NCBI GenBank assembly: GCA_946187325.1
Contig: CAMHQC010000006.1
Span: 1-64,000 of the forward strand
Length of the DNA: 64,000 nt
Direction: 5' to 3'
Origin: an uncultured Clostridia bacterium
GTDB taxonomy: Bacteria > Bacillota > Clostridia > Oscillospirales > Acutalibacteraceae
The notes beneath the pieces were generated by a model. That model worked only from the letters and a program-made list of their open reading frames with translations, had not been told where the DNA came from and made no database searches. The translations under genes and the position numbers were made by a program. Shown in pieces: positions 2,420-37,880 of this stretch (position 1 is the first letter of the stretch; the number at the start of each line of letters is the position of its first letter).

Positions 2420-2931
2420 TAATCCCGTTTACTTGCTTCGGAATAGATAAAGCAAAACCCCGGGATTATTGCGTCCGAAAGTATGTCTGGCTATTTTTAT
2501 GTGATAGGAAATAACCCAATTCGGACGTTTGAAAACTGAATAACCTCAGACAAAGTACATTCTCTTTGATCGCGAGCTACAGAAGCGGACGTTCATATGT
2601 ATGAATCTCCAGGACTTCGACCAAGCGAGGTAAACGCAAGGAAAGCCACGACCGACAGAGAGGACAATGATACTTCTGCTCAGCCACAGTCCGAGCGTTA
2701 AAAGCGTCGCAGGCAATGGGAGCAGCCGTCCAAGGAGACGGTGGTGGAATTCCAATGGAGCTATATGCAATAGCCGCTTTGTCTGATAGAAATAAATAGA
2801 GAGCAAAAATCGGTAAGTTTAGTGCGCTGACTTTAGTCAGCGGCAAGCAGAGTGCTCGGCTGTCCGCCGCAGCACTATATAATCGGGCGGAAGCCCGAAC
2901 CCACTTACAATAACAAGGAAAGGAGAAAAAT
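2420..2931. other. Candidate oriT / mobilization regulatory region
   Basis: Long non-coding stretch immediately upstream of mobC-relaxase; inverted repeats ATAATCCCG...CGGGATTAT (about 2420-2469) and CGTCCGAA...TTCGGACG (about 2472-2527). Confidence 0.45.
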
Positions 2932-18904: not shown

Positions 18905-19069
18905 TCGAATTATTTTAGATTATGTGAATTATAGCCGGCTTTTGCCGGCCGGTAGAAAAGAACCTGCATAAAAAGTGAAAAAAGATTGTAATACGCGAAA
19001 GAGCGGGCTTTAAACCGCAAACGAGCGAACTGCTTTTTACCCTCGGCTTTAAGTCCTGCCTCCGCAACC
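18905..19069 (-). repeat. tRNA-tail mirror unit F2 (fMet locus), degenerate
   Basis: Starts with inverted tRNA-fMet 3' end TTAAGTCCTGCCTCCGCAACC (19049-19069); follows a second copy of the tail plus terminator. Confidence 0.55.
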
Positions 19070-19117
19070 TTTATGTAAAGTAAAAAAAGGTATCCCATTT
19101 GGAATACCTTTTTGATT

Positions 19118-19294
19118 GGTTGCGGAGACATAGTTCTATCTCCGGAAAATACCTGCCTCGCCTTTTACGGCTTGTTTAGGGGATAGTTTCATCTGCGCGG
19201 CGGTCTAAAAACGCTTACCCGAAGCGTTTTTACCTTCGATTTTCGCTGACGCTTAAATCTCGGTACGACCTGTTCAAGTCCTGCCTCCGCAACC
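19118..19294 (-). repeat. tRNA-tail mirror unit F1 (fMet locus)
   Basis: Bounded by GGTTGCGGAGA (19118-19128) and inverted TTCAAGTCCTGCCTCCGCAACC (19273-19294); contains hairpin TAAAAACGCTT..AAGCGTTTTTA and AAACAAGCCGTAAAAGG. Confidence 0.6.
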
Positions 19295-19340
19295 TTTATG
19301 TAAAGTAAAAAAGGTATCCCATCTGGAATACCTTTTTGAT

Positions 19341-19416
<76 letters not shown>

Positions 19417-29652: not shown

Positions 29653-30240
29653 TTATACATTTCCCATTTTTACAGCTTGTAAAAAATCTTTAGCTTCATT
29701 ATTGGGATTTGCTTTTTTTGTTGCCTCAATATCATACCAAACATATTCTAATCCGTGAACAATAATAGGAATACTATTTCCAAATTTGTTCTTGATAAAT
29801 CCCTCAGATTGTAATCGGTTGGCAACTTCTGCTGCGATATTTACAAGTTCATAATGACCTACGGGACCCTTACCAACATATTCGTCATTTTCATCATACT
29901 CATCTTCTTCGGACTCATAACCGATATCGGTGATTCCGTTTTCATTATACCAATCAAAAAGCGCGTCAGTTATTCTGTTCGGTTCAAGCGGATCTATTAC
30001 AGATGTCTCATCTTGGCTCCAAAAGGCGTAATTCCAGCGTTCTTCGTCATATTTGCCCGCACCGTCACAAAAATCTTCGGTATTGTAACTTACAGCTAAA
30101 GAAGAAACGTTTTCGAATCCACTATATTGAAAATCCTCATTTGAATATACAAAAAACGATATAGCGTAAATTCCGTTATCATCCCAATCGGATACGATTT
30201 CTTTAATTCTATTATATATTATTTCTATTATATCTGTCAT
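29653..30240 (-). CDS. Hypothetical protein, DUF4303-like
   Basis: ORF with start MTDIIEIIYNRIKE after AGGTGAT; acidic globular sequence; family call is tentative. Confidence 0.55.
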   Translation of the reverse strand: MTDIIEIIYNRIKEIVSDWDDNGIYAISFFVYSNEDFQYSGFENVSSLAVSYNTEDFCDGAGKYDEERWNYAFWSQDETSVIDPLEPNRITDALFDWYNENGITDIGYESEEDEYDENDEYVGKGPVGHYELVNIAAEVANRLQSEGFIKNKFGNSIPIIVHGLEYVWYDIEATKKANPNNEAKDFLQAVKMGNV

Positions 30241-30349: not shown

Positions 30350-30389
30350 CTCAGAAAACAAAAACGACCCGATGGGTCGTTTCTGTTTT

Positions 30390-30531
30390 GGCTGAGCTGG
30401 CGTACTTTTTAAGTAATAAAGAATTATATCTCGAATCGTACGGCTTGTTAAAAGGATAGTGTGATAAACGCTCCTCCCTAAAAATGTCCCACTGGGACAT
30501 TTTCTTTACGGTCGGCTTCGAATCTCTTGTC
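30390..30531 (-). repeat. tRNA-tail mirror unit S2
   Basis: Hairpin AAATGTCCCagtGGGACATTTTT; AACAAGCCGTACGATTCGAGA; tail CTTCGAATCTCTTGTC. Confidence 0.65.
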
Positions 30532-30578: not shown

Positions 30579-30724
30579 TTGGCGGAGGACAAGAATATAT
30601 CATAAATGCGAGGACTTTGTTCTCGAACCTTACGGCTTGTTCAAAGCTAAAGTATCATAAACGCTCCTCGTTAAAAATGCTCCACTGGAGCATTTTCTTA
30701 ACACTCGGCTTCGAATCTCTTGTC
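30579..30724 (-). repeat. tRNA-tail mirror unit S1
   Basis: TGGCGGAGGACAAGA (30579-30593) to inverted CTTCGAATCTCTTGTC (30709-30724); hairpin AAATGCTCCagtGGAGCATTTTT. Confidence 0.75.
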
Positions 30725-31084: not shown

Positions 31085-31123
31085 GCGCCAATAGCTCAGT
31101 AGGATAGAGCGTTCGCCTCCTAA
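31085..31123 (+). pseudogene. 5' half of tRNA-Arg(CCT), interrupted at the anticodon loop
   Basis: GCGCCAATAGCTCAGTAGGATAGAGCGTTCGCCTCCTAA; continues at 37516. Confidence 0.85.
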
Positions 31124-31197
31124 TACTTTGTTCGACCATACACTTTTGGGGTAAAAGTGATTGTTACCCTGTCAAAATTTAATTAAGTTTTTTACAC

Positions 31198-31274
31198 GCG
31201 TCAATAGCTCAGTTGGATAGAGCGCAAGCCTCCTAAGCCTGAGGTCGGGGGTTCGAGCCCCTCTTGGCGCGCCA
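31198..31274 (+). tRNA. tRNA-Arg(CCT), complete, island-borne
   Basis: GCGTCAATAGCTCAGTTGGATAGAGCGCAAGCCTCCTAAGCCTGAGGTCGGGGGTTCGAGCCCCTCTTGGCGCGCCA. Confidence 0.93.
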
Positions 31275-31320: not shown

Positions 31321-31368
31321 TTTATTTTTTGATAAATTCTTTGCCTTTTTAAAGCAAGCTCAAAAAAC

Positions 31369-31488
31369 TTGCTAATAAAGGTGTAAGGTCTTGCTAATAA
31401 AAATTAGCAAAAAAACGGAAAATCTGCTAATAAAAAACGTCGATTTGCTAATAAGCTGTTTTTAAAAATTTGCAATATTTGCTAATAA
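31369..31488. repeat. Left-end iteron cluster TTGCTAATAA
   Basis: Copies at 31369, 31391, 31424 (CTGCTAATAA), 31445 and 31479, plus inverted TTAGCAA at 31404. Confidence 0.85.
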
Positions 31489-31587
31489 AAAGGTGATAGG
31501 TCACTTGTTGGAATTACGTTTTTTACTTGTAACTGAATATAAATGATAATAAAAAAAGCAGTTCACATTTGAACTGCTTTTTTTATC

Positions 31588-37364: not shown

Positions 37365-37414
37365 TTGCTAATAATCTGCTAATAAGACTATTTGAAAACG
37401 GTTGATATTAGCAA
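37365..37414. repeat. Right-end iteron cluster TTGCTAATAA
   Basis: Copies at 37365, 37376 (CTGCTAATAA) and inverted at 37408. Confidence 0.8.
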
Positions 37415-37515
37415 GTTTTAGTTAAAATCAGATTAACACCCAAACATTGTGAAACCCGCATAAATACTGAATTATTTGGCATTGTTTAAGTCTGAAAAAT
37501 CCGATGCGGGAGGTG

Positions 37516-37559
37516 CTCCTAAGCGAAAGGCCGGGGTTCGAATCCCTTTTGGCGCGCCA
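37516..37559 (+). pseudogene. 3' half of the disrupted tRNA-Arg(CCT)
   Basis: CTCCTAAGCGAAAGGCCGGGGTTCGAATCCCTTTTGGCGCGCCA; GCGAA pairs with TTCGC of 31085-31123; TTGGCGC pairs with GCGCCAA. Confidence 0.85.
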
Positions 37560-37563
37560 AAAC

Positions 37564-37704
37564 AAAAGGGATTCGAAAGGGCGTAAATAAAACAGTCCTG
37601 TGGACTGTTTTTAGCCCGTAGCGTTTATGATATTTTAGCTTTGAACAAGCCACAAGGTTCGAGATTAATCGTTTTATATATATTAATTGTACTTTTGGCG
37701 CGCC
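37564..37704 (+). repeat. tRNA-tail mirror unit U1 (Arg locus)
   Basis: AAAAGGGATTCGAA...CAGTCCtgtGGACTGTTTTT...GAACAAGCCACAAGGTTCGAGA...CTTTTGGCGCGCC. Confidence 0.8.
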
Positions 37705-37742
37705 AAAACAAAAGAGCCTTAACGGCTCTTTTTGTTTTGCTC

Positions 37743-37880
37743 AAAAGGGATTCGAAAGGGCGTAAATAATACAGTCCTGTGGACTGTTTTTAGCCCGTAG
37801 CGCTTATGAGTATTTCAGCAATGAACAAGCCGCAAGGTTCGAGATTAATCGTTTTATATATATTAATTGTACTTTTGGCG
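37743..37880 (+). repeat. tRNA-tail mirror unit U2 (Arg locus), near-identical to U1
   Basis: Near-identical repeat with GAACAAGCCGCAAGGTTCGAGA core, ending CTTTTGGCG. Confidence 0.8.

What the first reader, a model, noticed from the sequence alone, without database searches (positions are those of the whole stretch)
18905..19340. Third instance of mirrored tRNA tails, downstream of initiator tRNA-fMet beside metG
After tRNA-fMet and its terminator (AAAAAGGTATTCC..GGGATACCTTTTTT), the sequence GGTTGCGGAGGCAGGACTTGAAC is an inverted copy of the tRNA 3' end. It is followed by a unit with hairpin TAAAAACGCTT/AAGCGTTTTTA and AAACAAGCCGTAAAAGG, then a second tail, a near-identical terminator and a second inverted tail. 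This parallels the Ser and Arg loci with a different tRNA sequence, supporting a general mechanism.
Basis: partly seen in the sequence, partly recalled or inferred. Interest (0 to 1): 0.7.

Follow-up and report, generated by a model that had tools for sequence, protein, structure and literature searches.

The report
Mobile RNA-like units behind tRNA genes
Behind the initiator tRNA sits a roughly 220-base inserted unit with no gene in it, which carries both a mirror-image and a true copy of that tRNA's 3' end; the same kind of unit follows most types of tRNA gene across a whole genus of gut and rumen bacteria and resembles, on a far larger scale, the unexplained repeats behind one E. coli tyrosine tRNA.

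Summary
Downstream of tRNA-fMet lie a terminator (T1), an inverted copy of the tRNA 3' end (antitail), a structured core, a direct copy of the tRNA 3' end (tail') and a second, partial unit. The family occurs in 152 of 161 genomes of the genus, at 28 anticodons, and in other families of the order. Boundaries are sharp: the antitail complements tRNA nt 54-63, and tail' copies nt 63-76. Both follow species-specific tRNA variants. The core has covarying stems. A filled and an empty site in one genome show a precise 188-bp insertion with a 14-bp direct repeat. Best explanation: a protein-free insertion element that targets tRNA 3' ends, with a structured RNA core and a base-pairing guide. How it moves, and what the guide does, are inferred. 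No Rfam family matches the units. The nearest known thing is E. coli RtT (tyrT repeats), which I found here to have the same antitail-core-tail plan. Neither Cas1 nor reverse transcriptase is present in all carriers.

The parts
19341..19416 (-). tRNA-fMet (CAT); its nt 54-76 (TTCAAGTCCAGCCTCCGCAACCA) are the source of the mirrored and copied tails
   Evidence: ARAGORN; Rfam
19295..19340 (-). T1: terminator-like hairpin between CCA and the antitail
   Evidence: CC..GG apex in 50/80 T1 hairpins of occupied loci vs 5/50 of unoccupied tRNAs
19272..19294 (-). antitail: complement of tRNA nt 54-75 with one mismatch at nt 63
   Evidence: inverted repeat I2
19131..19271 (-). core: P1 GGTC (19270-19267)/GACC (19205-19202), extra hairpin 19265-19231, P3 hairpin 19231-19207, conserved AACAAGCCGTAA motif
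   Evidence: (hit 19244-19189)
19117..19130 (-). tail': TGTCTCCGCAACCA, copy of tRNA nt 63-76 (exact for nt 66-76)
19070..19116 (-). second copy of T1
   Evidence: direct repeat D1
19048..19069 (-). second antitail
   Evidence: inverted repeat I3
18990..19047 (-). start of a truncated second core (GCCGAGGGT...), no tail copy; left end approximate
   Evidence: by eye
30595..30724 (-). Ser unit 1: antitail 30724-30710 and core
30580..30594 (-). Ser unit 1 tail' TCTTGTCCTCCGCCA
30403..30531 (-). Ser unit 2: Ser antitail 30531-30517 and core
30389..30402 (-). Gln-type tail (CGCCAGCTCAGCCA) ending Ser unit 2: a chimera of Ser and Gln units
   Evidence: Gln tail in L074
29510..29617 (-). 3' half of a further Ser unit, separated from a Gln-type 5' half by an ORF
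37537..37559 (+). tRNA-Arg 3' end (nt 54-76) of a truncated gene
37564..37705 (+). Arg unit 1: antitail 37564-37577, core, tail' 37692-37705
37743..37880 (+). Arg unit 2: antitail 37743-37756, core, truncated tail copy

Best explanation
The fMet unit is one copy of an undescribed family of protein-free insertion elements that sit at tRNA 3' ends. Shown: an element is T1 hairpin + antitail + structured core, flanked by a direct repeat of tRNA nt 63-76 (14 bp), inserted directly after CCA in the sense direction. The core contains a covarying stem P1 with tandem G.A pairs around hairpin P3. The antitail complements nt 54-63 of the local tRNA and tail' copies nt 63-76, so together they specify the whole nt 54-76 end. 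Because T1 terminates and nt 63-76 are duplicated, the tRNA gene stays intact. Inferred: the element acts as a folded single strand, probably RNA. The antitail works as a guide that pairs with the tRNA T-arm strand, and the 62/63 point is where tail and tail' are exchanged, so that joining or excision there restores a correct tRNA end. Cores spread between loci by insertion or recombination, while the ends are set by, or selected to fit, the local tRNA. The mobilising enzyme, if any, acts in trans and is not identified.
For: Filled and empty sites in one genome (G098 tRNA-Trp): exact 188-bp insertion, 14-bp repeat, flanks nearly identical. Empty and filled fMet loci across the genus, with the ancestral terminator displaced downstream in L194. 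Sharp boundaries in 116 and 87 units: antitail complementarity 97-100% at nt 54-63, falling to 25% by nt 71; tail' identity 94-100% at nt 63-76 and background at nt 62 and below. Ends follow species variants of the same tRNA: antitail 49/52, tail' 44/45. In six Gly-TCC units sharing an odd antitail, both ends are 100% identical while the 3' half of the core is 51% identical. Core covariation: 10 of 17 pairs change on both sides, 0/500 shuffles; 62 cores, G-U 53 vs A-C 0. Cores resemble each other more within a genome at different tRNAs (0.691 vs 0.652, 0/1000 permutations). L153 (Arg) and L241 (Ser) share 102/119 core positions but have different, locally matching ends.
Against: No transcript, excision product or movement has been observed. 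T1 and P3 both look like terminators, so transcription into the core may be rare. No associated protein found; Cas1 is in only 6/20 and reverse transcriptase in 10/20 carriers. The guide role rests on comparative data only; gene conversion or template switching could also keep the antitail matched. In three discordant units (window fMet and Pro, L220) the antitail agrees with tail' rather than with the tRNA at nt 63 and beyond.
Confidence: 0.5

Rival explanations
1. Host regulatory RNA: read-through of T1 yields a structured RNA whose antitail pairs with the unfolded tRNA T-arm or with tail', controlling tRNA output or a stress response, as proposed for E. coli RtT. Insertion was only the origin.
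For: Ends conserved in units whose cores have diverged; conserved core structure; the tRNA tail and antitail form a very stable alternative fold; presence in 152/161 genomes; RtT shares the plan.
Against: Presence is patchy per tRNA: most of the ~30 fMet loci read have no unit. Copy number per locus varies from 0 to 3. No consistent downstream gene and no promoter identified. T1 should block most transcription of the unit.
Confidence: 0.3
2. Passive DNA element mobilised by tyrosine integrases of co-resident ICEs or prophages that use the same tRNA 3' ends; tail and tail' are attL and attR cores.
For: Direct repeat of the tRNA 3' end is typical of such sites; longer att-like copies of the same tRNA-Trp end occur at other integrated elements in G098 (L309, L310).
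Against: Does not explain the antitail, the RNA-like covarying core, or why ends fit 28 anticodons; no integrase gene in the 188-bp insert.
Confidence: 0.2
3. The antitail match is maintained passively: polymerase template switching homogenises the arms of the tail-T1-antitail inverted repeat, and tail' is a direct repeat kept by recombination. No guide function.
For: Template switching is reported to create and maintain RNA hairpins (PMC8794818) and to homogenise inverted repeats (PMC8604942); chimeric Ser/Gln unit shows inter-locus recombination.
Against: Complementarity stops abruptly at nt 54 and is obligatory only to nt 63, although the rest of the arm is equally available; tail' is equally exact at all 14 positions.
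Confidence: 0.15

Closest known systems
RtT RNA / tyrT operon repeats of E. coli (Rfam RF00391, rttR)
   Same: Tandem non-coding repeats directly behind a tRNA, each ending in an exact copy of the tRNA 3' end (AATCCTTCCCCCACCACCA, nt 58-76) and beginning with an inverted copy (GGGGAAGGAT, complement of nt 59-68) that closes the Rfam stem. A helix framing a tandem G.A is reported for it (PMC8250186).
   Different: RtT: shown here only at the E. coli tyrT/tyrV tRNA-Tyr genes; no CC..GG terminator T1; different core sequence; no RF00391 match to these units. The present family sits at 28 anticodons with locally matched ends and a 14-nt copy.
Casposons (Cas1-type transposons)
   Same: 14-bp target duplication at a tRNA 3' end (PMC6977970).
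   Different: No Cas1 in 14/20 carriers; no antitail is described for them; the casposon duplication overlaps only the last 4 bp of tRNA-Leu.
Group I introns and trans-splicing ribozymes
   Same: Analogy only: a guide pairing upstream of a junction plus a downstream exon copy.
   Different: About 115-nt core, no Rfam intron match; no evidence of catalysis.
Integrative elements in tRNA genes (tyrosine integrase)
   Same: tRNA 3' end preserved, direct repeat at both ends.
   Different: Under 250 bp, no integrase, antitail and structured core.

Membership tests
RtT (RF00391) | Match to the Rfam covariance model | tested here: not met
   No RF00391 hit in the window or related units even at permissive E-values; E. 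coli control hits at 133-138 bits
RtT (RF00391) | Repeat behind a tRNA, ending in a copy of its 3' end including CCA | tested here: met
RtT (RF00391) | Inverted copy at the start that can pair with the tail copy | tested here: met
   for E. coli; here; the antitail/tail' overlap is short (nt 63-69) and variable in this genus, longer in other families
RtT (RF00391) | Stable RNA product released from the tRNA transcript | not testable with these tools
   no expression data
Casposon | 14-15 bp target duplication at a tRNA 3' end | tested here: met
Casposon | Cas1-type integrase available in the genome | tested here: not met
   6/20 carriers; absent from unit-rich G033, G198, G140
Retroelement mobilised by reverse transcriptase | Reverse transcriptase available in the genome | tested here: not met
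   10/20 carriers; absent from unit-rich G168 and G198
Group I or II intron | Conserved intron core | tested here: not met
   no Rfam match
T-box riboswitch | T-box core upstream of an amino-acid gene | tested here: not met
   no Rfam match; units lie behind tRNA genes
tRNA-integrating element (tyrosine integrase) | Integrase gene within the element | tested here: not met
   188-bp insert, sequence read whole

The most novel reading that the evidence does not exclude
The units are a new class of guide-bearing mobile RNA: the antitail pairs with nt 54-63 of a tRNA precursor, and the folded core, alone as a small ribozyme or with a host enzyme, exchanges the tRNA end at nt 62/63 for tail', so that the element excises from or enters tRNA ends and re-specifies its ends at each new tRNA.
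Probability: 0.15. Interest if true: 0.93.

Novelty: new variant of a known kind. Interest (0 to 1): 0.74.

Why it matters
E. coli RtT repeats have stood as an isolated oddity of one tRNA gene. If they and these units are one kind of element, bacterial tRNA 3' ends host a widespread family of gene-free insertions whose two ends are written to fit each tRNA. With up to 40 units per genome, 28 anticodons and many species, how such an element finds its target and rewrites its ends becomes directly testable. It would also change how tRNA 3' flanks and terminators are annotated in gut Clostridia.

Tried and rejected
Rfam at gathering and permissive thresholds: only tRNA and weak chance hits; an apparent ylbH leader hit in L125 is two generic hairpins. 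Cas1 and reverse transcriptase as universal mobilising enzymes: not in all carriers. Phages, plasmids and viral contigs: no match; these are exact-pattern or blastn tests and may miss diverged units. Hammerhead-like CTGATGA in some cores: the C and the GAAA partner are not conserved, rejected by eye. T1 as the tRNA's own native terminator: the displaced ancestral terminator in L194 and the CC..GG apex bias argue against, although the Gly-GCC case (L040 vs L044) could be read the other way and a direct T1/T2 comparison with empty loci was only weakly informative. A coding function: no open frame is conserved by inspection. RNAalifold on whole cores found only P3; structure of the 3' half of the core is unresolved. 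Literature searches found nothing on this family; one query was rejected for its syntax.

Full report
Observation. On the minus strand behind tRNA-fMet (19416-19341) lie T1 (19340-19295), an inverted tRNA tail (19294-19272), a 141-nt core, a copy of the tRNA end (19130-19117), a second T1 and a second inverted tail, then a decayed core. Folding of 371 nt pairs the tRNA 3' half with the antitail (z -9.6).

A family, not three coincidences. The window has further copies behind tRNA-Ser (two units, plus half units around an ORF) and behind a truncated tRNA-Arg end. A covariance model (R1) from 14 Gly, Ser and Arg units has 10 of 17 pairs with changes on both sides; 0 of 500 shuffles reach this. 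It finds 16 places in the own genome at E<=0.1, including the fMet unit at E=4.7e-5 (the weakest place, L079, looks like coding sequence), and matches in 152 of 161 genomes of the genus, with up to 40 units in a genome with about 38 tRNA matches. Named relatives are uncultured rumen and gut Ruminococcus or Oscillospiraceae MAGs. Weaker hits in other families of the order include 13 loci where antitail and, in most, tail copy were verified.

Anatomy. In 116 units the antitail is complementary to the local tRNA at 97-100% of cases for nt 54 to 63, then 84, 75, 72, 59, 57, 40, 46 and 25% for nt 64 to 71. In 87 units tail' is identical at 94-100% for nt 63 to 76 and at background below nt 63. Units were selected for having an inverted match somewhere in the tail, so the level inside nt 54-63 is partly conditioned, but the positions of the two boundaries are not. 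Cores are about 115 nt. P1 carries tandem G.A/A.G in 50 of 62 cores, replaced by Watson-Crick pairs in the rest, and P3 covaries strongly; G-U pairs 53, A-C 0, as expected for RNA of the tRNA sense strand, though most G-U cells are one column. T1 hairpins of occupied loci have a CC..GG apex in 50/80, against 5/50 for unoccupied tRNAs (p=1.6e-9), so T1 appears to belong to the element.

Insertion. At fMet, related species lack the unit, and in L194 the terminator seen directly after CCA in empty relatives (GTCAAAARTGGCTTAAACAGTG...) instead follows tail'. In genome G098 a filled and an empty copy of the tRNA-Trp 3' end share nearly identical flanks; the difference is exactly 188 bp ending in TTCTGCCCCTGCCA, giving a 14-bp direct repeat.

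Ends follow the tRNA, cores do not. Within an isotype the antitail fits the variant of its own species in 49 of 52 units and tail' in 44 of 45; for example tRNA-Gly-TCC with TTCGATTCTC (L039, L042) has a matching antitail change. Cores at different tRNAs of one genome are more alike (0.691) than cores of different genomes and tRNAs (0.652; 0/1000 permutations), while sharing the tRNA adds little (0.658, p=0.195). L153 (Arg-ACG) and L241 (Ser-GGA), from different genomes, share 102 of 119 core positions but have different, locally fitting ends. Six Gly-TCC units with the same odd antitail have identical ends but 51% identity in the 3' half of the core. So the ends are either constrained or continually corrected, and cores move or recombine between loci; the chimeric Ser/Gln unit in the window is a visible case.

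Mechanism. Shown: precise sense-strand insertion with a 14-bp repeat, structured core, ends matched to the tRNA. Inferred: the antitail is a guide to the T-arm strand and nt 62/63 is the exchange point; the folded strand is RNA; an unknown factor acts in trans. Neither Cas1 (6/20) nor reverse transcriptase (10/20) is present in all carriers. Rivals are a host regulatory RNA, an integrase-mobilised DNA element, and passive arm correction by template switching (PMC8794818).

Comparison with the known. Reading the E. coli K-12 tyrT/tyrV locus gave the same plan: tRNA-Tyr tail, spacer, antitail GGGGAAGGAT, core, AATCCTTCCCCCACCACCA, repeated. Rfam RtT pairs exactly those two ends. RtT has been proposed to play a role in the stringent response (cited in PMC2965389). 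The present units do not match RF00391, so they are not filed as RtT; they work on the same plan. Casposons share the 14-bp duplication at tRNA ends (PMC6977970) but not the rest.

Verdict. A real, widespread, undescribed family; new variant of a kind of which RtT is the one known example. Confidence is high for the family, boundaries and insertion, moderate for a pairing function, low for any specific biochemical mechanism.

Noticed in passing
window 29653-30240 (-): A 195-aa ORF without Pfam match lies between a Gln-type and a Ser-type half unit, as if carried as cargo. Similar: an HTH_3 protein between two Arg units (L251) and a DUF3232 protein plus a 296-aa protein between Trp units (L248).
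   Followed up: partly
window 31085-31134 and 37510-37559 (+): The 5' half and the 3' half of a tRNA-Arg(CCT) gene lie about 6.4 kb apart, with an intact tRNA-Arg(CCT) at 31198 between them; looks like an insertion into the anticodon region that brought its own tRNA.
   Followed up: partly
L309, L310 (G098, downstream of tRNA-Trp): Several att-like copies of the tRNA-Trp 3' half lie tens of kb downstream of the gene; one (L306) carries a unit although only nt 54-76 of the tRNA remain there.
   Followed up: partly
window 2664-2758 (+): A pemK RNA motif (RF02913) above gathering score.
   Followed up: no
window 31364-31490 (+): A run of short degenerate repeats TTGCTAATAAAA behind tRNA-Arg, also seen near 37366-37420.
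   Followed up: no
L112, L114, L116, L119, L122, L123 (other families of the order): Units there have a small hairpin (such as CCCTGAGAGGG) directly after the antitail and a longer tail copy (nt 55-59 to 76) than in this genus.
   Followed up: partly
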